Below are positions 15,521 to 57,799 of a DNA stretch of 64,000 nt, piece after piece. Position numbers and translations under genes: made by a program. Each line of letters begins with the position of its first letter. Position 1 is the stretch's first letter. Source of the stretch: Aerococcus sp. (GTDB lineage: Bacteria > Bacillota > Bacilli > Lactobacillales > Aerococcaceae); NCBI GenBank assembly GCA_030528285.1, contig JAUMZE010000003.1, positions 162,810-226,809 of the forward strand. Direction: 5' to 3'. Below the pieces are notes generated by a model. That model was not told the DNA's origin. It saw nothing but the letters and a program-made list of their open reading frames with translations, and made no database searches.

Positions 15521-16624
15521 CTAGTTTAGTTTGCGCAAGGTTGCTTTCTTGACGTCTTCAATTGTGGTATGACCCGTCAGCTGCATGTCGATACTCAATT
15601 CCTTGTTGAAGTATTCGATGACTTCACGGACACCTTCTGCCCCACCATTCGCTAAACCATACATAAATGGGCGACCGATCCCAACGAAATCAGCACCCAA
15701 TGCGAGGGCTTTGAAGACGTGAGATCCGCGACGCACACCGGAGTCCATGATGACTGGTACACGATGATCTACCGCTTTGGCAATTTCAGGGAGGACGGTG
15801 ATAGGGGCTGGGGCGCCATCGACCTGACGACCGCCGTGGTTCGAAACGTAAATACCTTTCGCACCTGCTTGGATGGCGATTTCAGCGTCTTCAGCGGACA
15901 TAACCCCCTTCACGATAATTGGGAGGTCCGCCATTTCACTCAGACGTTGGATGTCTTCGGGCTTGATGACCTGTGCTGCCTCGTTGTAGAGATCGAACAC
16001 GGTCTTACCAGAGCCATCTTCGGAGTATTTCTCGAGGATCTTCATTGGGACAGGATAGGAGAATCCTGCGCGCATGTCACGTTCACGATAACCACCAACC
16101 GTTGCATCGGCCGTCAACATGATCGCACTCACGCCATTTTCGTGGGCTTCTTCCAACATACGTTTGTTCAAATCCCAGTCCTTGTTGAGGTAGAGACCAA
16201 ACACTTGTGGGAAACCTTGACTTTCCTTCGCCACTTCGCTGAAATCACTATTTCCATAAGTACTGAATCCCATGACAGCCCCTGCCTCGGCCGCCCCGCG
16301 TGCGGTGGTCACTTCAGCACCTGAATGCGCGAGTCCATGCGCTGCGAGGGGTGACAGGATGACTGGGGTGTTCACTTTTTTACCGAAGAACGTGGTGTGA
16401 AGATCTGGATCGCTCTTGCCCGTCAAGACGTGGGAAATAATTCCGTAGTCATAGAATGCACGGGTATTTTCATTGAGAGTCCATTCTTCCTCCGCACCAG
16501 ATTCGATGTAGGCAAATCCGCCCTGAGGTAAAATCTCCTCGGTTTGACGGCGCAAATCTTCAATGTCGAAGAAATGTAATTCGCCCTCACGATCACTCTG
16601 TTGATAGCCATTTACTGTTGTCAT
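15521..16624 (-). CDS. lctO: L-lactate oxidase (FMN-dependent alpha-hydroxy-acid oxidase)
   Basis: A 367-residue cytoplasmic flavoprotein that oxidises L-lactate with O2 to pyruvate and H2O2. Key residues of the FMN hydroxy-acid family are present: Tyr39 in GGFAYI, Lys239 in IIVKGV, the catalytic base His263 and Arg266 in SNHGGRQ, and the FMN phosphate region (DSGVRRGSHVFKALALGADFVGIGRP, residues near 290-315). The start at 16624 is chosen because AGGAGG lies eight bases before it; a longer in-frame reading lacks such a site. It lies 156 bases downstream of pyruvate oxidase, so the two can convert lactate to acetyl phosphate. Lactate oxidase is favoured over lactate monooxygenase by the genomic setting; this is an inference. 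Confidence 0.92.
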   Translation of the reverse strand: MTTVNGYQQSDREGELHFFDIEDLRRQTEEILPQGGFAYIESGAEEEWTLNENTRAFYDYGIISHVLTGKSDPDLHTTFFGKKVNTPVILSPLAAHGLAHSGAEVTTARGAAEAGAVMGFSTYGNSDFSEVAKESQGFPQVFGLYLNKDWDLNKRMLEEAHENGVSAIMLTADATVGGYRERDMRAGFSYPVPMKILEKYSEDGSGKTVFDLYNEAAQVIKPEDIQRLSEMADLPIIVKGVMSAEDAEIAIQAGAKGIYVSNHGGRQVDGAPAPITVLPEIAKAVDHRVPVIMDSGVRRGSHVFKALALGADFVGIGRPFMYGLANGGAEGVREVIEYFNKELSIDMQLTGHTTIEDVKKATLRKLN

Positions 16625-16780
16625 CGCGTATCCTCCTATTATTTTTGTCCGTGTTTCATTGATAAGTAAATTCTGGTTGCTTTCCCACTCACTCACAAAT
16701 AAGTTGCATAGGGGAGATCACTGTTGATTGATAAGCCCCCCTCATGCACTCATTGGATGCTGAGTGTTTTCGCTCCAATT

Positions 16781-18517
16781 TTAGTTTTCTTCGTCTTTCA
16801 AGAAATGAGTCAATGGAATGAGACCGTCTGTTTGATAGGTCTCTGTGAATGCCTTGACTGCTTCTTCGCCCGCAACAGCTGGATCGAGTTTCAACTGTTC
16901 CACTGGCAATGGACGATCATTGGCGATATTGGCGTTAATTACAACCGGACCGTCCACTTCCTGTGCTTTTTGGAAGGCTTCCTTGAGGTCTTTGACATTG
17001 TCCACGTCAAATCCGGTGGCCCCGAGCGCACTCGCTGCCGCACCGAAATCAGCCCCGATCAAATCCACACCAGAATGCGGTTGCTTGGTATCGTCCTGTT
17101 CTGCCTCGATGAACCCGAGTGATTTATTCGTCAACACGACATTGATGACGTGTTGGTTATATTTCACTTGGGTCAATACATCTGGGAAGACCATGGCCCA
17201 GCCGCCGTCACCAGAGATCGACCATACTTGGCGATCCGGATAGTAGGCTTTGGCCCCAATCGATGCAGGGAGACCATACCCCATCGTCGCATACCAACCA
17301 CTCGTGGAGAATTGTTGGTTCTTGGACATATCCAACAGACAGAATGCATCGATCGTCACATTTCCGACATCTGTTTGGAAAATCGCATCATCCGTGGCCA
17401 TCGCATTGATTTCCTTGAAGACGGCTTCAACCGCTAATGGACTAGAATCAATATCCGCACGTTTGTTGAGCCATTCCATCCAGTTGGCTTTGTTCTTGAG
17501 GTTGGCTCTGTACCATGGTGTTTCTGGTAAGTCCTCACCAATTTCAATCAAAGCCTCTACCGTTGCTTTGGCGTCGGCTTGGATCGCTAAATCAACGGAA
17601 TGACGGCGACCAAACTTCGCCCCATCAATATCGACTTGAATGTACTTCGCGTCTTTTGGAATGAAGAAGCCCTGGAATGGCATATCAGAGCCCAAGAAGA
17701 GAACGGCATCGGTATTCTGTGCGGCTTCCACACCTGGTTTCGTAGCCACACGTCCGGATGCACCCATATATTCAGGTGCATTGTCAGGGACGATTCCCTT
17801 TCCGAGTGCCGAACTCATAATCGGTGCTTTGATCATGTGTGCGAGGGTGAGGAGTTCTTCCCGTGCCCCACGTGAACCCTGGCCGATGTAGATCAATGGA
17901 TGTTTAGCATTTTTCAGGATGTCCCAAGCTTTTTCGATGGATTCAGGGTTTGGTTGAATCGGCATTGGGGTCTGGAACCATTTGGCAGTAGAGACATAAT
18001 TATCCTCAATTTCTGTCCAGCCGAGGTCTTTAGGAATGGTGATAACTGCCACGCCCTTCTTCGCATAAGCTTCACGAATGGCCTCGTCCACCATGGCTGG
18101 GAGTTGTTCCGCCGTCATTGCGGTGCGGTTGTAGACACTCACATCCTCAAACATTGGATTCTCGTTCAATTCCTGGAAGAAATGCGTGTTCATGTTGAAC
18201 GTTGGTACCTGTCCAATCAGAGCGAGCACTGGCACATGGTCGTATTGTGCATCATAGAGACCATTCAACAAGTGAACCGCGCCAGGACCGGCAGACCCAA
18301 ATGTGACCCCGATTTTGCCGGTGACTTTTGCTTCACCGACTGCTGCCAGTGCCCCTACTTCTTCGTGACGCACTTGGACATAGTTAAGCGTATCGCGGCG
18401 GTTGTAGATCGCATTCATCGTAGAATCGAAGGACCCGCCAGGCAGGCCGTAGATATTTTTGACACCCCAGGCTTCAATCACCTTGAGCATGGCATCGGAT
18501 GCATTAATTTTTGACAT
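16781..18517 (-). CDS. spxB: Pyruvate oxidase (acetyl-phosphate and H2O2 forming)
   Basis: A 578-residue thiamine-diphosphate flavoenzyme: pyruvate + phosphate + O2 give acetyl phosphate, CO2 and H2O2. The activating Glu is in VRHEEVGA (52/53), the ThDP motif runs from GDGGWAM (436) to Asn464, and the FAD-domain segment GRVATKPGVEAAQ is present. The overall sequence resembles lactic-acid-bacterial POX/SpxB rather than acetolactate synthase. It lies 42 bases downstream of the beta-helix-like protein and upstream of lactate oxidase. The order suggests control by the MarR regulator at the head of the cluster. Confidence 0.95.
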   Translation of the reverse strand: MSKINASDAMLKVIEAWGVKNIYGLPGGSFDSTMNAIYNRRDTLNYVQVRHEEVGALAAVGEAKVTGKIGVTFGSAGPGAVHLLNGLYDAQYDHVPVLALIGQVPTFNMNTHFFQELNENPMFEDVSVYNRTAMTAEQLPAMVDEAIREAYAKKGVAVITIPKDLGWTEIEDNYVSTAKWFQTPMPIQPNPESIEKAWDILKNAKHPLIYIGQGSRGAREELLTLAHMIKAPIMSSALGKGIVPDNAPEYMGASGRVATKPGVEAAQNTDAVLFLGSDMPFQGFFIPKDAKYIQVDIDGAKFGRRHSVDLAIQADAKATVEALIEIGEDLPETPWYRANLKNKANWMEWLNKRADIDSSPLAVEAVFKEINAMATDDAIFQTDVGNVTIDAFCLLDMSKNQQFSTSGWYATMGYGLPASIGAKAYYPDRQVWSISGDGGWAMVFPDVLTQVKYNQHVINVVLTNKSLGFIEAEQDDTKQPHSGVDLIGADFGAAASALGATGFDVDNVKDLKEAFQKAQEVDGPVVINANIANDRPLPVEQLKLDPAVAGEEAVKAFTETYQTDGLIPLTHFLKDEEN

Positions 18518-50878: not shown

Positions 50879-51292
50879 ATGCGTCACATTCTCCATAAAA
50901 TGAAGCTGTTCGATTTTATTCTGATTGGGCTCGTGGTCATTCTCTCATTCGCCCCGAACCTCTATACATATTGGACCTACTCACAAGGCGATCAGACCTC
51001 CCCGCCCACTGCCCTCGTGAAGGTGAACGGGGAGGTGGTCGCCCATTACACCCTCGAGAAGAACGGCCAGCATGAGATTAAAACCTACTATCCAAATAAA
51101 GGTCAATACAATATCATCGAAGTCGATAATGACCGCATTCGCATTAAGGAGGACAATTCCCCGGATCAGATTGGGGTACGGACGGGCTGGATTTCACGTC
51201 CCGGTCAAACCGCGGTCTGTCTCCCCCACCATGTCGTCTTGGAAGTCACTGGGGACTACAGTGAAAACGACCTCATCCTCCCGCTCTCATAA
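50879..51292 (+). CDS. eetA: EetA-like NusG-domain-II membrane protein of the EET locus
   Basis: A 137-residue protein with one N-terminal membrane segment (FDFILIGLVVILSFAPNLY, about 10-28) and a small extracytoplasmic beta domain of NusG domain II type (ALVKVNGEVVAHYTL, TAVCLPHHVVLEV). The CLPH motif is typical of proteins found in flavin-based extracellular electron transfer loci. The ATG at 50879 is preferred because GGGAGG precedes it. It converges on dmkA with a shared terminator. In Listeria EetA works with EetB in EET, in a step not fully defined. Confidence 0.85.
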   Translation: MRHILHKMKLFDFILIGLVVILSFAPNLYTYWTYSQGDQTSPPTALVKVNGEVVAHYTLEKNGQHEIKTYYPNKGQYNIIEVDNDRIRIKEDNSPDQIGVRTGWISRPGQTAVCLPHHVVLEVTGDYSENDLILPLS

Positions 51293-51303
51293 CTAAAGGC
51301 GAG

Positions 51304-51354
51304 AAAAATAGCTCTCTGTTTAACCAAAATTTTGGCACAGAGAGCTATTTTTTT
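51304..51354. terminator. Bidirectional terminator between eetA and dmkA
   Basis: Perfect 14-bp-class stem (AATAGCTCTCTGT / ACAGAGAGCTATT) with flanking A- and T-runs. Confidence 0.9.
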
Positions 51355-52324
51355 AACGGAAGATGACCGCTAAGATCAAAGTTAAGAGGTAGACACTGCA
51401 AAACAGGGTATAGGCTTTAGTAGCTTCTGGGAAGGCACGTTTCTGTCCGACATATTGGGTGTAGCGCCTAACTAGGAAGTAATGCGGGATCGCAGCTAGC
51501 AGCATCACCAGTGACCAGCGTGGCAGGATGCCCGTAATCCCGAAACCGATCCAGAACAGCCATGGCAGGATACTGAAAGCCTGGTACATCAAGAGCGCAT
51601 TACTTCGACCGATGTAATAAACGAGGGTGTAGCGTTCGTTCTTGATATCCGTGTCGAGGTCGCGGGTATTATTGGCGAGCATAATATTCGCTATGAGGAT
51701 CACTTCCGGGAGTGCCATTATAAACAGCTTCAGCGTCTCCAACCAGTCAAACTGAATCACGAGGCGTTCCATACTCAACTGGCTGGAGAGGAGCGTCGGG
51801 TAGCGCGTCACGAACACCGCCGTATAGAAAATCCCAAATCCCATCGTCATACTCGAGAAGAATTCCCCAAATGGCGTTCGAGAAATCGGAAACGGCCCGA
51901 ACGTGTAACTAATCCCGATCACATACATGATCCCGCCGAGCACCAGTAGCATCAGATCCGTCCGCCATACGAGGATCAGAGATAGGATAAAGGCCGTCAT
52001 AAACAACCCCAACACAATTTTTACCATCTGCTTGAAATTGAGATTTTCCCGTCCTATCACATTCTCATCGCTACGATAAGTGTCATCGAGGGCTTTGTGG
52101 TAGTCCATCGTGTTGTTGATGGCCGTCACACACATATCAAAAATCGTCCCTGCCACAAAGAACAGAATAGCATTGCCTAGATTCAATTCATGGTAGTGAT
52201 AAATCGTCCAGAAGAACCCCAGCATCATCGGGAAGAAACTGGCAATTTTCGTACGTAACTCAATAAACTCTAAGAACACGGCCACGTCATGTTTCGTGGG
52301 CCAGTGAATATCAGTTGTTTTCAT
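51353..52324 (-). CDS. dmkA: UbiA-family demethylmenaquinone prenyltransferase of the EET locus
   Basis: A 323-residue membrane enzyme (about eight to nine segments) that attaches a polyprenyl chain to dihydroxynaphthoate. Two Asp-rich motifs are visible: NNTMDYHKALDD (first N-x-x-x-D-x-x-x-D) and NNTRDLDTDIKNERY. The ATG at 52324 lies 14 bases inside the end of fmnB, indicating coupling. The EET setting supports DmkA, a MenA paralogue dedicated to the electron-transfer quinone; whether another menA exists in the genome is not visible. Confidence 0.88.
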   Translation of the reverse strand: MKTTDIHWPTKHDVAVFLEFIELRTKIASFFPMMLGFFWTIYHYHELNLGNAILFFVAGTIFDMCVTAINNTMDYHKALDDTYRSDENVIGRENLNFKQMVKIVLGLFMTAFILSLILVWRTDLMLLVLGGIMYVIGISYTFGPFPISRTPFGEFFSSMTMGFGIFYTAVFVTRYPTLLSSQLSMERLVIQFDWLETLKLFIMALPEVILIANIMLANNTRDLDTDIKNERYTLVYYIGRSNALLMYQAFSILPWLFWIGFGITGILPRWSLVMLLAAIPHYFLVRRYTQYVGQKRAFPEATKAYTLFCSVYLLTLILAVIFR

Positions 52325-53402
52325 TTGCGATTTTGTACTCCTCATTCGTTAATTTAAAACTCTTCTTCAAGCCATCTGAGAGATAGATATGATGCGATTT
52401 ATCGATGTATGCGACCTCATATCCCGGTTTTTGGTTGATGAATTTCAGCCCTTGGTTAATCCCCATCATAAATAATGCAGTGGAATAGGAATCGCCATCG
52501 AACGAGCTCGGCGCAAAGACGGTAACGCTAGCGACGTTATTATCGAGTGGATAACCGGTGCGTGGATCAATAATGTGGTGATAGGTCTTGCCGTCCTTTT
52601 CGAGATATTGTTCATAGATTCCCGACGTGACAACGGCGGTATCCCCCTTGACGAGTTTTGATCCGACCACTTGATTGCGTTTCTTATCTGGGTCTTGAAT
52701 ACCGACCGTCCAACCATCTTTATTGGTGGGGTGATTCCCGACGAGCGCTACATTGCCTCCGAGGTTCGCAATCGCACTGGTGACGCCTTCTTTTTTGAGG
52801 AGGGTTGCCACTTGACTGCCGATGTACCCCTTGGAGATACCGCCGAGTTCGAGCCGCATGCCTTTCTTCTTCAGATAGACGGTCTGATTGGCTTCGTCCA
52901 GTTCAATATCCTTGTAGTTCACGAGTGGGAGAGCTTGTTTGATCTCATCCTCTGAAGGTACGCGTGCATTGTCTGATCCGATCTGCCAGAGATTCGTGAC
53001 TGCTCCAATCGTAATATCAAATAGGCCACCGCTCTCTTTGGCAATCTCAATTCCGCGTTTCACTAGATTAATCGTATCCTGGGTGACCTTCACAGGATGA
53101 CTACCCGCCGCTGCGTTGATCTTCTCCACATCCGATCCTTTTTTATTGGTGGTGAATACGTCCTGGATGCTCTCCATGTAATCGAATGCTTTATCCATTG
53201 CTTGGGTTTTATTCTTGTCGAAGATCTGGAGCTGAACACTCGTATAGAGGACTTCTTCTGTCCTGGAATCCGGTTTGGTCGTCACATCCCCGGAGGTTTG
53301 TGCTTTATTTTCCTCGTTTACTTTTTGTTGGGATTGACAGCCACTGAAGAATAATAGCAGAATCAATAAACCGGCGATCCACCCCAATGATCGTTTCTTC
53401 AT
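52311..53402 (-). CDS. fmnB: FAD:protein FMN transferase lipoprotein (ApbE/FmnB)
   Basis: A 363-residue lipoprotein with signal LLILLLFFSGC (lipidated Cys22). ApbE-domain motifs follow: FDITIGAVTNLW, GGISKGYIGSQVA, ANLGGNVALVGNHP, HHIIDPRTGYPL and DSYSTALFMMG. The enzyme splits FAD and attaches FMN to Thr/Ser in target proteins outside the membrane; the target is very likely the adjacent PplA-like lipoprotein, which has the acceptor motif. Overlaps dmkA. Confidence 0.93.
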   Translation of the reverse strand: MKKRSLGWIAGLLILLLFFSGCQSQQKVNEENKAQTSGDVTTKPDSRTEEVLYTSVQLQIFDKNKTQAMDKAFDYMESIQDVFTTNKKGSDVEKINAAAGSHPVKVTQDTINLVKRGIEIAKESGGLFDITIGAVTNLWQIGSDNARVPSEDEIKQALPLVNYKDIELDEANQTVYLKKKGMRLELGGISKGYIGSQVATLLKKEGVTSAIANLGGNVALVGNHPTNKDGWTVGIQDPDKKRNQVVGSKLVKGDTAVVTSGIYEQYLEKDGKTYHHIIDPRTGYPLDNNVASVTVFAPSSFDGDSYSTALFMMGINQGLKFINQKPGYEVAYIDKSHHIYLSDGLKKSFKLTNEEYKIANENN

Positions 53403-53475
53403 CTATACACGCCTTTCTAAAGTAAAAGGGGGTTGGCCTCACACCTTCCCCCTCACATTCATTTCAATGACGTCA

Positions 53476-53994
53476 TTATTCTTTCGTCATTATTTTTTGG
53501 GTGTCACCCTTCTTCGCCGCATCCATCAGCTGTTGCATTTGTTCTTTGAATGCTTGAGACGTATGCGTTGCCCCAGAAACTACATCCACTTTATCTGGAT
53601 TTTGTTCCTTCAAGAATTGATCCACGAGCTGCTTCACGGCTTCGTTTGAGGAGGTACCAGATTTGTCCTTCATAGAGGTTTGGTACTCCTCATTTTCACT
53701 CTTCTTGTTACCGTCTTTATCGTAGCCTTCGTAGTCTACTGAGTCGATCTTGCCATCTTTAACGACCATCGATACTTCTGTCTTCCAGCCGTTCTCGGAC
53801 ATTGGCGTTTCCAAAGTGTAGGTGCCGTCTTTCATTTCGGCATTATCATTCGCTGCAGTTGAGCTTTCTGAAACAGATTCACTCTTAGCTTCGCTGGAGC
53901 TGCTGGAGGCTTGATCATTATTTTGGTTCCCACAAGCTGCCAATGCGAACACTGTTCCAAATAAAACCGTTGCCTTCAATAACTTACTCTTCAT
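53476..53994 (-). CDS. pplA: PplA-like flavolipoprotein with single FMN-binding domain
   Basis: A 172-residue lipoprotein: lipobox LAAC with Cys21, a Ser/Glu-rich linker (about 28-50), then one FMN_bind domain (about 55-160). The acceptor motif is VVSGATHTS with Thr143 as expected flavinylation site. In Listeria the corresponding PplA has two such domains, so this is a reduced version. It is the predicted last carrier, passing electrons to extracellular acceptors such as ferric iron or flavins. Lies between fmnB (its modifier) and dmkB. Confidence 0.88.
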   Translation of the reverse strand: MKSKLLKATVLFGTVFALAACGNQNNDQASSSSSEAKSESVSESSTAANDNAEMKDGTYTLETPMSENGWKTEVSMVVKDGKIDSVDYEGYDKDGNKKSENEEYQTSMKDKSGTSSNEAVKQLVDQFLKEQNPDKVDVVSGATHTSQAFKEQMQQLMDAAKKGDTQKIMTKE

Positions 53995-54042
53995 TACAAC
54001 GTCCTCCTTAGACTAAAACTATTAATTACTAACATCCATTAA

Positions 54043-55026
54043 TTAATCGATAGTGGGAAGTAGGTGGAGCTCCTGGAATAACTGCTTGATCTCTTGCTTC
54101 ACTTGCTCCTCCCCAGGTAAATGACTGAGATGTTTGAGGGACTGATGGGTAAATCGATACATGAGTGCCTCTGTCTGTTCAAATCCCTGTGCTTCCTCAA
54201 TGGCAGTGAGTAGCTCTCCTTCAGAATGAGGGCCCCACTGCTCCCTTTTGGCAAAAGCCATGAAATGTTCAGGATCCGCCTGTTTCAGAAAATGGAGTGG
54301 GGCCGTATAGATGCCATTTTGGATATCTTGGAGATGGGGTTTTCCGGATTGCTGACGCTCACTCTGATAATCGAGCAGGTCATCCGCTAACTGGAATGCC
54401 ATCCCCAAATGCTCTCCGACTGCGAGTGCTTGGCGATAATGACGTTCACTATCTCCTGCTTGGTAATAACCTGCATAGGTACTAAGCGCAAATAACAGCG
54501 CTGTTTTCCTGCGTACCTGTTTCAGATACTGGTTAAAGGTCATCGTTGGGTCATGTTGGTGCATGAGCTGACTGATTTCCCCATTGAGAATCGCCGCCAC
54601 CAGTTGATGGTAGCGTTCCCCAATCTGTTCAGGAACATGGCCATCTTTCAGAAGCTGTGCTGCCAGGGTGAGAAGATAATCGCCGGCATAGATCGCAATA
54701 CGGTTACTATAGGTGTGTTGCATTGCTTCAGTCCCACGCCGCTCATCTGCCAGGTCGATCACATCATCGTGAATCAATGTGGCGAGGTGGAGCACCTCCA
54801 CTGCTGCAGCCAGATAATATTTATTCTCGGGCATCTCTCCCTCATTCTTTAGTTCTGCCATCAATAACAACAATCCTGACCGCAAATATTTTCCCGGAGC
54901 ATCCATGTAATCCATAATTTTTTGTTTAACGTCAGGATGCGTGATCTGAACGGATGAGTGCATCAATGCTAATACATCCGCTAGTCCCACTTGAATGGTG
55001 GGATGCGCCTGCCAAATTTTATGCAT
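54043..55026 (-). CDS. dmkB: Polyprenyl diphosphate synthase (EET-associated DmkB)
   Basis: A 327-residue trans-isoprenyl diphosphate synthase. The first Asp-rich motif is LIHDDVIDLADERRG, the second FQLADDLLDYQ. It builds the side chain used by DmkA for demethylmenaquinone. Located 28 bases after ndh2 and before the flavolipoprotein gene. Chain length cannot be read with confidence; heptaprenyl-type is usual. Confidence 0.9.
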   Translation of the reverse strand: MHKIWQAHPTIQVGLADVLALMHSSVQITHPDVKQKIMDYMDAPGKYLRSGLLLLMAELKNEGEMPENKYYLAAAVEVLHLATLIHDDVIDLADERRGTEAMQHTYSNRIAIYAGDYLLTLAAQLLKDGHVPEQIGERYHQLVAAILNGEISQLMHQHDPTMTFNQYLKQVRRKTALLFALSTYAGYYQAGDSERHYRQALAVGEHLGMAFQLADDLLDYQSERQQSGKPHLQDIQNGIYTAPLHFLKQADPEHFMAFAKREQWGPHSEGELLTAIEEAQGFEQTEALMYRFTHQSLKHLSHLPGEEQVKQEIKQLFQELHLLPTID

Positions 55027-55054
55027 AAGACTCGCTCTCTCTACTGCTCATCTA

Positions 55055-56965
55055 TCAGGAATGATTTGGCGTATAGAGATGTTTCGGCTGACCAAACCAC
55101 CAGCGATCGAGGTGGCGTGCGATCCATGGAATCACATAATAGTCGAGCCCAAACACGCGCCCAGCCCCAGACATCAGTGCAATTGCGGCCGGAATGAACC
55201 ACATGTTGACCCAAACGAACATCCCAGAGAGGCAGAACATGCTGACCAGAACGACCGTAATCCCGCTGAACAGCCAGGTGAATAAACCGATAATGAGGCA
55301 GGCCCCAATCACCAGTTCAAAGATCGCCATGAAATGTTGCATGAAGAAGGCAACGTCGCGGTTTGGCAGCAAAATTTTCATGATTGATTCAAACCAATGT
55401 GGCATGTCTTGGAACACCAGCATTGGTTGTTCGCCATAGACATAGTTCAAACTGAAAATCTGTTGTACGGCCTCTCCACCGCCTGCGCCACTCGCGGCAG
55501 ACACCGCGTCGGAAGCCCCAGGCGTCGCCGCTTGACTGGCACCGGACACTGCTTCTTGTAGCCATGGGAATGGGAAAGCAAGGGTATGTCCGAACCACGA
55601 CTCACCGCCAAACAGCCCGAAACACTTCTTCAGTCCTTCCACAAACCACATGCCTCCATAGAATAACCTAAGCGGCAAAAGCCATAATAAATTGCCATGG
55701 AAGGAAAGCGCCCCGCCGAAGATATTTCGATGATGCTTGATATAAAAGAACTCATCCGCAATATATTGCCAGGTATAATATGGATTAAACAAGCTGAATA
55801 AGAAATAGCGGATGTTCACAATATGTTTAATCAGCATCGCCCAGAAGCCTTGGAGAGAGTATTTATCAAACAAGCGTGCGACCCCATAATGGGACCCGAT
55901 CGACACCATATTGCCGTCGTACTTACCCTTGAATGGGGTGAGGGTCTTCCCTTTGATGGTGCGGTAGATATTTTCACCAGCTGTAATTCCCGTTTGTTCG
56001 GCTGCTTGTACAATCTGCGGCGTTGGCTTATTGTCTTTGTCCGGTTCCTCATAGTAAACCACATCCCCTGCAACGAAGACATGTTCTAACCCCTTCGCCT
56101 GCATGTATTGGTCCGCAATGAGGCGTCCAGCGCGTCCCTGCTCCATCTCAAACGCATCGACATCGCGATTCGCCTGTACCCCGGCTGTCCAGATGCAGGT
56201 TTGAGTCGGGATGGATTTTCCAGAAGTGAGCTGCACAGCATTCGGTCCAATTGCTTGAATGCCGTCACCGAGTGAAATTTCAATGCCGACCTTCTCCATG
56301 TAACGAATGGCACGTTTGGCTTCAACCTCTGTCACTGTGTTTAATATATGCGGTGCTGCTTCTACCAAATGACACGAGATTTCCTCAGGATTCAAGTGAT
56401 GTTTTTTGGCTAGAATCGGGAGCCACTCCGCGAGTTCACCGACCATCTCGACGCCGGTAAATCCACCACCGGCCACAACGAATGTCAACAATTCCCGCCG
56501 TTTTGCTTCGTCGTGCTCACGCGCTGCACGATACACCATATCAATTACCTGTTCACGGATCCGTTCAGCGTCCTCCATCGACCAGAGCGTATAGGCATTG
56601 TCCTTGACTCCTGGTACGCCGAAATCATTCGGTTGAGAGCCCATCGCAATGAGTACATAATCAAAGGCATGCGTTCCGTGTTCTGCAATCACCTGTTTTT
56701 TCTCGTAATCAATCTGCGTCACATTGTCCGTCATGAGATCGACGTTCTTCGCCCGAGCAAAGATGCGCTGAAGGTCATACTGAATCGCTTCAGGTTCCAC
56801 ACGCCCAGCTGCCACCTCATGGAGTTCCGTCATATAGGTCTGGTACGGATGCCGATCGATCAACGTGATTGTGACATTTTTATCTTTCTTGAACCGATTA
56901 CTCAAACGTCTTGTGGCACTCACGCCCGCAAAGCCAGCACCTACAACCACAATATTGGTATTCAT
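55055..56965 (-). CDS. ndh2: Type II NADH dehydrogenase with C-terminal membrane extension (EET Ndh2)
   Basis: A 636-residue protein. Residues 1-400 form an NDH-2 flavoprotein: VVVGAGFAGVSATRRL, VVAGGGFTGVEMVGEL and the FAD motif HVFVAGDVVYYEE. From about 400 on there are several hydrophobic segments (for example LWLLPLRLFYGGMWF and FMAIFELVIGACLIIGLFTW), resembling a DoxX-like domain and absent from ordinary NDH-2 (about 400 residues). This extended form is characteristic of EET loci, where it feeds electrons from NADH to demethylmenaquinone. First gene of the minus-strand operon, with a promoter that carries a cre-like site. Confidence 0.93.
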   Translation of the reverse strand: MNTNIVVVGAGFAGVSATRRLSNRFKKDKNVTITLIDRHPYQTYMTELHEVAAGRVEPEAIQYDLQRIFARAKNVDLMTDNVTQIDYEKKQVIAEHGTHAFDYVLIAMGSQPNDFGVPGVKDNAYTLWSMEDAERIREQVIDMVYRAAREHDEAKRRELLTFVVAGGGFTGVEMVGELAEWLPILAKKHHLNPEEISCHLVEAAPHILNTVTEVEAKRAIRYMEKVGIEISLGDGIQAIGPNAVQLTSGKSIPTQTCIWTAGVQANRDVDAFEMEQGRAGRLIADQYMQAKGLEHVFVAGDVVYYEEPDKDNKPTPQIVQAAEQTGITAGENIYRTIKGKTLTPFKGKYDGNMVSIGSHYGVARLFDKYSLQGFWAMLIKHIVNIRYFLFSLFNPYYTWQYIADEFFYIKHHRNIFGGALSFHGNLLWLLPLRLFYGGMWFVEGLKKCFGLFGGESWFGHTLAFPFPWLQEAVSGASQAATPGASDAVSAASGAGGGEAVQQIFSLNYVYGEQPMLVFQDMPHWFESIMKILLPNRDVAFFMQHFMAIFELVIGACLIIGLFTWLFSGITVVLVSMFCLSGMFVWVNMWFIPAAIALMSGAGRVFGLDYYVIPWIARHLDRWWFGQPKHLYTPNHS

Positions 56966-57031
56966 AGGCGTTTCCTTTCTATTTTTACTTACTTTTCCCT
57001 ACCAAAACATTATATTAATATAGCTGAGAGC

Positions 57032-57060
57032 ATTATATAACGTTTTCACAATCACTTCAA
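57032..57060 (-). promoter_or_regulatory. Predicted sigma-A promoter of the ndh2 EET operon
   Basis: On the minus strand TTGAAG (57055-57060), 17 bases, TATAAT (57032-57037). Confidence 0.78.
57035..57048. promoter_or_regulatory. cre-like half site within the ndh2 promoter
   Basis: On the minus strand TGAAAACG matches the left half of the cre consensus perfectly, but the right half (TTATAT) does not. It lies in the spacer and -10, where CcpA binding would block transcription. Confidence 0.4.
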
Positions 57061-57105
57061 GGTTTACTTTGTAATTAATTATTACTTCGTGAAATTGACA
57101 ATGCA

Positions 57106-57114
57106 TGCTACACT
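57106..57114 (+). promoter_or_regulatory. Candidate extended -10 promoter of eetB
   Basis: TG-C-TACACT, 52 bases before the start codon; a small CCGGT/ACCGG hairpin lies between it and the ribosome-binding site (57131-57146). Confidence 0.4.
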
Positions 57115-57165
57115 GTTAATTGTATTTTGTCCGGTAAAATCACCGGCTTATCAAAGGAGTTATTC

Positions 57166-57726
57166 ATGCAAAAACAACACACGGAACGCCTCGTCTACGC
57201 AGCGATTCTAGCTGCTCAAGCCATTGTCATTGGGTATTTTGAAGCCTTCCTCCCCTCACCGGCGGCAATTGCCCCAGGAGCAAAGTTGGGGCTCTCTAAC
57301 CTGATGACGGTGGTGGCGTTATTCTCACTACCAACCTCCTACAGCTTTGTGATTATTTTCCTAAGGGTATTTGCGACCTCGCTCCTCTTTGGCACCTTTT
57401 CGACCTTCCTCTATAGTATGACGGGTGCCCTGTTCAGTCTGATTGCGATGTGGGCGATCAAACAATTAGGTCCAAATCGGGTTAGTTTGATCGGGATCTC
57501 CACAGTGGGCGGATTCATGCATAATCTCGGCCAGCTCACGGTAGCGGCTGCGATTGCTGGGTCCCCGGCGATCCTCAATTACTTGCCTGTTCTGACCTTG
57601 GCTGGGATTGCGGCAGGATTTGCGATTGGGGTGATTGGGAACTTCCTCATTGCTCATCTCTCCGCCACTCGCCTATTTCGAAACGATCCTCATTTCCACG
57701 AGCAATATCAGCAGTGGGTGGTATGA
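57166..57726 (+). CDS. eetB: EetB-like Gx-transporter-family membrane protein of the EET locus
   Basis: A 186-residue protein with about five to six hydrophobic segments and Gly-rich stretches (APGAKLGLSNLMTVVALF, TLAGIAAGFAIGVIGNF). It matches the Gx transporter / 'heptaprenyl diphosphate synthase component I' family, which resembles ECF S components. The ATG at 57166 follows AAAGGAG and is preferred over a longer reading. Divergent from ndh2. In Listeria EetB is required for EET with EetA; its substrate is not established. Confidence 0.85.
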   Translation: MQKQHTERLVYAAILAAQAIVIGYFEAFLPSPAAIAPGAKLGLSNLMTVVALFSLPTSYSFVIIFLRVFATSLLFGTFSTFLYSMTGALFSLIAMWAIKQLGPNRVSLIGISTVGGFMHNLGQLTVAAAIAGSPAILNYLPVLTLAGIAAGFAIGVIGNFLIAHLSATRLFRNDPHFHEQYQQWVV

Positions 57727-57735
57727 GGACATAAC

Positions 57736-57799
57736 AAAAAAGGCTAATCACCATCCTTCTGCTTGCCCGAAGCTAGCAGAGGTCAGTGATTAGCCTTTT
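57736..57799. terminator. Bidirectional terminator between eetB and fruA
   Basis: AAGGCTAATCAC pairs with GTGATTAGCCTT, flanked by an A-run and T-rich tail. Confidence 0.88.

What the first reader, a model, noticed from the sequence alone, without database searches (positions are those of the whole stretch)
50879..57726. Compact flavin-based extracellular electron transfer locus
Seven genes match the known Listeria-type EET set: eetA, dmkA, fmnB, PplA-like, dmkB, ndh2 and eetB. Ndh2 has the membrane extension specific to EET loci, FmnB is a lipoprotein and the neighbouring lipoprotein has an SGAT flavinylation motif. The core five genes are one operon flanked by eetA (convergent) and eetB (divergent). 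In a fermentative lactic-type organism this offers an alternative NADH outlet.
Basis: partly seen in the sequence, partly recalled or inferred. Interest (0 to 1): 0.75.

Follow-up and report, generated by a model that had tools for sequence, protein, structure and literature searches.

The report
Aerococcaceae flavin electron-export gene locus
A fermenting bacterium of the Aerococcus family carries a compact, intact-looking set of genes of a known kind for passing surplus electrons to acceptors outside the cell, but appears to depend on quinone precursors taken from its surroundings.

Summary
It is a flavin-based extracellular electron transfer (FLEET) locus, a system characterised in Listeria, Enterococcus and Lactiplantibacillus. 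The genome belongs to Aerococcaceae, where a close Ndh2 match occurs in 41 of 76 genomes. So it is a new member of a known kind, not a new system.

Tools add four qualifications. (1) PplA has one FMN domain and one attachment motif (Thr143); Listeria PplA has two. (2) There is no fmnA: the one ECF-T found in the 85%-complete genome is the housekeeping EcfT, so EetB, now read as the S-component of a FAD exporter, would have to use that one or rely on outside FAD. (3) MenD, MenB and MenG do not exceed cut-off in this genome or in the other 8 locus-bearing Aerococcaceae of the 40-genome set, so DmkA/DmkB probably prenylate imported DHNA. (4) No cytochrome bd was found in the genome. Nothing here shows that the locus works; that needs assays.

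The parts
50879..51292 (+). eetA: membrane-anchored NusG_II protein, 137 aa, role unknown
   Evidence: Pfam NusG_II 7e-29; N-terminal hydrophobic segment 3-32
51302..51354 (.). hairpin shared by eetA and the core operon, probably a two-way terminator
   Evidence: fold z -7.65 (+) and -7.54 (-), T runs on both sides; not listed by the terminator scan, whose loop limit it exceeds
51353..52345 (-). dmkA: DHNA polyprenyltransferase (MenA-like); start possibly 52324
   Evidence: UbiA 1.7e-17; NCBIfam NF009926 281.5 bits, below its cut-off of 316; NNxxD motifs
52311..53402 (-). fmnB: lipoprotein FAD:protein FMN transferase (ApbE)
   Evidence: ApbE 3.6e-88; PDB 7esa, 315 bits; counterparts of S257, H273, D301 kept
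53476..53994 (-). pplA: lipoprotein with one FMN_bind domain; predicted FMN attachment at Thr143
   Evidence: FMN_bind 6.1e-9; NF041941 PplA 154 bits over the first part of the model, cut-off 325; motif DVVSGATHTS
54043..55026 (-). dmkB: long-chain polyprenyl diphosphate synthase
   Evidence: polyprenyl_synt 7.4e-56; DDVID and DDLLD motifs
55055..56965 (-). ndh2: type II NADH dehydrogenase with C-terminal membrane extension, 636 aa
   Evidence: Pyr_redox_2 2.1e-44, DoxX 7.4e-6; hydrophobic 538-597; long form in 19 of 40 relatives
57166..57726 (+). eetB: ECF S-component-like membrane protein, predicted FAD exporter subunit
   Evidence: PF07456 6.1e-43; same Pfam family as Listeria EetB (PMC9973259 section 11)
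57738..57799 (.). hairpin between convergent eetB and fruA, probable two-way terminator
   Evidence: fold z -8.75 (+) and -7.67 (-)

Best explanation
The locus encodes a flavin-based extracellular electron transfer (FLEET) chain. Ndh2 oxidises cytosolic NADH and reduces a naphthoquinone in the membrane. DmkB makes the prenyl chain and DmkA joins it to DHNA; the DHNA is probably taken from outside, giving demethylmenaquinone because no MenG was found. EetB, working with the housekeeping EcfA-EcfA'-EcfT motor because there is no fmnA, moves FAD out. FmnB attaches FMN from that FAD to Thr143 of PplA on the outer face. PplA and free flavins or quinones then pass electrons to ferric iron or another acceptor. 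EetA assists in an unknown way. Shown here: gene identities, key motifs, synteny, and absence of men genes over cut-off and of cyd in the available sequence. Inferred: every biochemical step, by transfer from Listeria, E. faecalis and L. plantarum.
For: Domain hits for all seven proteins. FmnB matches FMN-transferase structure 7esa with 315 bits against 187 for the next PDB sequence and keeps the counterparts of the S257-H273-D301 triad reported for Listeria FmnB. The long Ndh2 occurs in 19 of 40 relatives; in all 19 at least four other genes of the set lie in the stretches taken around ndh2 or fmnB (G020 split over two contigs). Shorter NDH-2-like hits (frames of about 400 aa) match only about residues 2-389 and lie elsewhere. 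Thr143 is kept in at least 90% of 19 aligned FMN domains, G011 having Ser, and Thr143 is an attachment site in Listeria PplA, where Ser can replace Thr (PMC8906456 passage). Requirements for ndh2, pplA and eetA/B are shown in L. plantarum (PMC9888254 passages). MenD and MenB exceed cut-off in the same 5 of 40 genomes, none in Aerococcaceae.
Against: No experiment. The PplA model's curated cut-off is not reached (154 of 325 bits), whereas two-domain relatives score 411 and 416; no NCBIfam model reaches cut-off for the other six proteins either. In Listeria the need for FmnA suggests that EcfT cannot replace it in FAD export (PMC9973259 passage), so FmnA-less export is unproven. EetA was dispensable in Listeria, dmkA and dmkB were largely dispensable in L. 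plantarum, and PplA was not required for iron reduction in E. faecalis (PMC9864754 passage), so the exact path is open. The genome is 85.39% complete, so single absences in it are weak.
Confidence: 0.93

Rival explanations
1. The locus is mainly an NADH:quinone and cell-surface flavin system for iron acquisition or redox protection, not a growth-supporting electron outlet.
For: No MenD, MenB or cytochrome bd over cut-off in the genome, so quinone supply may be sporadic. Only one flavin site on PplA. Lactate-oxidase-like and pyruvate-oxidase-like genes in the same window (15521-18517) point to oxygen-linked outlets in the same organism (domains; the enzyme names are recalled).
Against: The whole set including DmkA/DmkB and the long Ndh2 is kept together. 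L. plantarum, also unable to make quinones, uses such a locus with outside DHNA (PMC10746273 abstract and passages).
Confidence: 0.2
2. The locus is a decaying remnant: single-domain PplA, no fmnA, no quinone synthesis.
For: One PplA domain and no fmnA, against two domains and an adjacent ECF-T in the Listeria-like genomes G029 and G036. Only 4 of 15 genomes in the genus have the long Ndh2.
Against: All reading frames are intact with catalytic motifs kept. The sister genome G011 keeps all seven genes at 68-84% identity. Exactly one FMN motif is found in 14 of 24 PplA proteins examined. Among 19 locus-bearing genomes 17 have no second ECF-T above 140 bits.
Confidence: 0.05

Closest known systems
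Listeria monocytogenes FLEET/EET locus (lmo2634-lmo2641, as named in PMC8837199)
   Same: Ndh2, DmkA, DmkB, FmnB, PplA, EetA, EetB all present; FmnB triad and PplA Thr143 conserved
   Different: no fmnA in the locus or found elsewhere in the available genome; PplA has one FMN domain instead of two sites (Thr143 and Thr265); no MenD/MenB/MenG over cut-off; in the Listeria-like genomes G029 and G036 ndh2-dmkB runs divergently from pplA-fmnB-dmkA
Lactiplantibacillus plantarum FLEET locus
   Same: fermentative quinone-auxotroph setting; dmkA present without DHNA synthesis (PMC10746273 passages)
   Different: the L. plantarum locus is described as including FmnA and ATPases (PMC9888254 passage); none here
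FLEET loci of Ignavigranum ruoffiae (L001) and Ruoffia tabacinasalis (L003), Aerococcaceae
   Same: same core order ndh2-dmkB-pplA-fmnB-dmkA; Ignavigranum also has divergent eetB and convergent eetA
   Different: PplA longer: two FMN motifs in Ignavigranum, one motif plus a motif-less second part in Ruoffia

Membership tests
FLEET (Listeria-type EET) locus | Ndh2 with C-terminal membrane extension | tested here: met
   636 aa, Pyr_redox_2 + DoxX, hydrophobic 538-597
FLEET (Listeria-type EET) locus | dmkA and dmkB | tested here: met
   UbiA and polyprenyl_synt with motifs; NCBIfam cut-offs not reached
FLEET (Listeria-type EET) locus | lipoprotein FmnB (ApbE) with S257/H273/D301 counterparts | tested here: met
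FLEET (Listeria-type EET) locus | extracytosolic FMN_bind lipoprotein PplA with [ST]GA[ST] motif | tested here: met
FLEET (Listeria-type EET) locus | PplA with two FMN sites / NF041941 curated cut-off | tested here: not met
   one site; 154 bits vs cut-off 325; two-domain relatives 411 and 416
FLEET (Listeria-type EET) locus | eetA and eetB | tested here: met
FLEET (Listeria-type EET) locus | fmnA (dedicated ECF-T) | tested here: not met
   the one ECF-T found in the genome is in an EcfA-EcfA'-EcfT block on contig C12; genome 85.39% complete
FLEET (Listeria-type EET) locus | NADH-dependent extracellular reduction needing ndh2 | not testable with these tools
   needs culture or heterologous expression
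Complete menaquinone pathway | MenD, MenB (DHNA synthesis) and MenG | tested here: not met
   none over cut-off in G000 nor in the other 23 Aerococcaceae among the 40 genomes searched; weaker paralogue-like hits exist

The most novel reading that the evidence does not exclude
Most FLEET loci of the Lactobacillales sampled here (17 of 19 genomes), this one included, do without a dedicated FmnA: EetB docks on the housekeeping EcfT-A-A' motor, so one shared motor both imports vitamins and exports FAD, the direction being set by the S-component alone. FmnA would then be an extra carried by some lineages such as Listeria and L. plantarum. Coupled to this, a one-flavin PplA suffices for the outer electron step.
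Probability: 0.4. Interest if true: 0.45.

Novelty: new member of a known kind. Interest (0 to 1): 0.27.

Why it matters
It extends a known electron-export system to another fermentative, apparently quinone-auxotrophic lineage. It also points to a concrete open question: how FAD reaches FmnB where fmnA is absent. Six of the 19 locus-bearing genomes in the 40-genome set have exactly one ECF-T (PF02361) match at E <= 0.001 (G000, G004, G011, G024, G032, G033), and three of these (G024, G032, G033) are listed as 99-100% complete. A shared, bidirectional ECF motor could be tested there.

Tried and rejected
Mobile-element reading: no tRNA-Ser lies near the locus in sister genome G011 (6.6 kb beyond eetA scanned), so no integration at the window's tRNA-Ser(CGA) is claimed. 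The fruR-fruK-fruA neighbour is shared with G011; in G014 and G005 the fru genes sit beside a similar tRNA array without the EET genes (G005 has its locus about 0.33 Mb away), so the position is lineage-specific.

Horizontal origin: in the DnaE tree the genus is one clade (100/100) and G005 pairs with G014 inside it (100/99). In the Ndh2 tree (19 rows) G000, G011 and G004 stay together (89/90), G005 pairs with G020 of another genus (100/98), and G023 sits with order-level genomes G025/G033 (100/99). I read this as mostly inherited in the window's branch, with separate acquisition or replacement in G005 and perhaps G023. Limits: the DnaE tree used 27 of 40 genomes (G007, G008 and G010 were left out by me; ten had no locus fetched, G023 and G025 among them), and outside the genus it does not keep the other Aerococcaceae together (G018 and G022 fall with genomes of other families), so it is a weak species tree there and says nothing about G023.

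Second FMN_bind protein in the genome: 966 aa with Oxidored_FMN + FMN_bind + FAD_binding_2 and no evident signal peptide, so not read as a second extracellular carrier. Regulatory RNA: at gathering thresholds Rfam found only tRNAs in the window. Promoter scan no better than chance. No structure prediction was run: sequence matches were sufficient.

Error of mine: the third extra query, meant to be the window genome's EcfT, was a wrong-frame ORF; it is ignored and EcfT was read instead.
Full report
What is there. Window 50879-57726 holds seven intact ORFs. Pfam places each in the expected family above its curated cut-off: NusG_II (EetA), UbiA (DmkA), ApbE (FmnB), FMN_bind (PplA), polyprenyl_synt (DmkB), Pyr_redox_2 plus DoxX (Ndh2), Hpre_diP_synt_I/PF07456 (EetB). 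No NCBIfam model reaches its cut-off for any of the seven. Five lie on the minus strand in the order ndh2-dmkB-pplA-fmnB-dmkA, closely spaced. eetA is convergent across a hairpin that folds well on both strands (z -7.65 and -7.54), and a second such hairpin separates eetB from fruA. Promoter-like sites are not above chance.

Protein-level checks. FmnB matches PDB 7esa (FAD:protein FMN transferase; that it is the Listeria enzyme is recalled and fits PMC8906456, which solved Listeria FmnB structures) with 315 bits, next best 187. The counterparts of the S257-H273-D301 triad (PMC8906456, passages) are present in the window's FmnB (numbering mapped by me through the alignment). PplA has a lipobox and one FMN motif, DVVSGATHTS, with Thr143. 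Listeria PplA is modified at Thr143 and Thr265. The NCBIfam PplA model gives 154 bits over positions 4-173 of 302, below the cut-off of 325, while two-domain PplAs from G029 and G036 give 416 and 411; the single-domain PplAs of G011 and G004 give 145 and 133. Of 24 PplA proteins examined (G005 and G032 have none to examine), 14 have exactly one motif by my pattern, among them two long proteins of over 430 aa (G074 and Ruoffia); of the other ten, G059 and G025 each include a probable chance match. One-motif PplA is therefore common in this sample and is no sign of decay by itself.

Where it comes from. The window is G000:C18:162810-226809 of a 1.62-Mb, 20-contig genome, 85.39% complete. G019, of the same family, has a contig of 130,993 bases, the length of the Ignavigranum ruoffiae contig that carries its locus, and Ignavigranum is in Aerococcaceae. 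A match to the window's Ndh2 at E <= 1e-100 is found in 41 of 76 genomes of the family and in 4 of 15 of the genus; two of the 41 contain stops and two others align only over residues 4-493.

Architecture across relatives. I mapped 25 locus-bearing genomes, the window's own included: all 19 found and six more that I picked from the 41 family genomes. In 12 of 15 Aerococcaceae the core runs ndh2-dmkB-pplA-fmnB-dmkA on one strand, with eetA between ndh2 and dmkB in two of them (G018, G068) and two dmkA copies in G004. G020 is split over two contigs, G005 lacks pplA, and G023 has the divergent form. In all 10 genomes of other families ndh2 and dmkB run divergently from pplA-fmnB-dmkA (G032 without a detectable pplA). 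The exact layout with divergent eetB and convergent eetA is in G000, G004, G011, G019 and G091. So the compact operon is typical of the family in this sample and not unique to this genome.

Quinone. MenD and MenB exceed their cut-offs in the same 5 of 40 genomes (G025, G029, G036, G037, G039), all outside Aerococcaceae. MenG exceeds its cut-off in 4 of 40 (G029, G031, G036, G038), none in Aerococcaceae. Weaker hits exist: MenB-like paralogues in G005 (93 bits) and G019 (133 bits) among locus-bearing Aerococcaceae, a MenD-like hit in G000 that coincides with the pyruvate-oxidase-like gene at window 16781-18517, and short methyltransferase hits. Cytochrome bd is not found in 8 of the 9 locus-bearing Aerococcaceae of that set, G000 among them (found in G023). 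This is the L. plantarum situation: a quinone auxotroph with dmkA that uses outside DHNA (PMC10746273, abstract and passages; PMC9888254, abstract and passages).

Flavin export. In Listeria, EetB is a FAD-binding ECF-S and FmnA its ECF-T; both are needed for PplA flavinylation unless FAD is supplied, which the authors take to suggest that EcfT cannot replace FmnA (PMC9973259, passages and sections 6, 11, 12). Here the one ECF-T (PF02361) hit in the genome is the EcfT of an EcfA-EcfA'-EcfT block on another contig; it is 48% identical to the locus-borne ECF-T of G036. Among the 19 locus-bearing genomes of the 40, only G029 and G036 have a second ECF-T scoring above 140 bits, and in both it lies directly behind dmkA. 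In six of 19 there is no other ECF-T match; the remaining eleven have further, weaker ones (121 bits or less) whose partners I did not examine and which could in principle serve EetB. In the mapped stretches weaker ECF-Ts lie about 2 kb from the locus in G025 and G091 (29% and 39% identity to that of G029). PMC9973259 reports eetB colocalised with an ECF-T gene in 291 genomes, of 4,214 with eetB, so eetB without an adjacent ECF-T is common. I found no paper that tests which motor such an EetB uses; the searches were made, and the listings of 25, 26, 45 and 64 were capped.

Literature. The FLEET locus was reported complete in 11 of 38 LAB genera (PMC8837199, passages); 'aerococc' does not occur in that main text. 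PMC10572741 (passages) states that Aerococcus christensenii (spelt otherwise there) lacks PplA, which agrees with G005 here if G005 is that species (not shown). A search for Aerococcaceae with extracellular electron transfer returned two fuel-cell community papers (listing only); a search pairing Aerococcus with quinone terms listed ten of 84 papers, none of which mentions Aerococcus.

Verdict. An ordinary, well-preserved FLEET locus in an Aerococcaceae genome. The points worth following are the missing fmnA, the single-flavin PplA and the apparent dependence on imported DHNA.

Noticed in passing
L068 (G005:C1:553000-572900): Locus with fmnB, ndh2, dmkA, dmkB, eetA, eetB but no pplA; the genome's two FMN_bind hits lie elsewhere in 641- and 396-aa frames (the second reads as a FAD-binding reductase; the first was not looked at), so the target of this FmnB is unclear.
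   Followed up: partly
L067 4923-6819 (G004): Two tandem dmkA copies (52% and 50% identical to the window's DmkA).
   Followed up: no
L085 4878-7778 (G000:C9): 966-aa protein joining Oxidored_FMN, FMN_bind and FAD_binding_2 domains beside aroD/aroE-like genes and LysR-like regulators (read by eye, names recalled); possibly a cytosolic enoate/fumarate-type reductase.
   Followed up: partly
L086 6087-7007 (G000:C14): Second, non-lipoprotein ApbE, 306 aa; the metal-binding Asp (Listeria D301) aligns to Glu, while all 25 FmnB rows keep Asp. It may be impaired or divergent.
   Followed up: partly
window 52311-53402: Listeria FmnB Arg262, tied to adenosine-phosphate inhibition (PMC8906456 passages), is Gln in G000, G011 and G005 and Arg in the other 22 of 25 FmnB rows.
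   Followed up: partly
window 15521-18517: FMN_dh (lactate-oxidase-like) and TPP enzyme (pyruvate-oxidase-like) genes side by side, both likely peroxide producers (domains; functions recalled).
   Followed up: no
G017:C65:17472-21097: ECF-T, ApbE and a 478-aa frame with four FMN_bind matches together, in a genome without the long Ndh2: a different flavinylation cluster.
   Followed up: no
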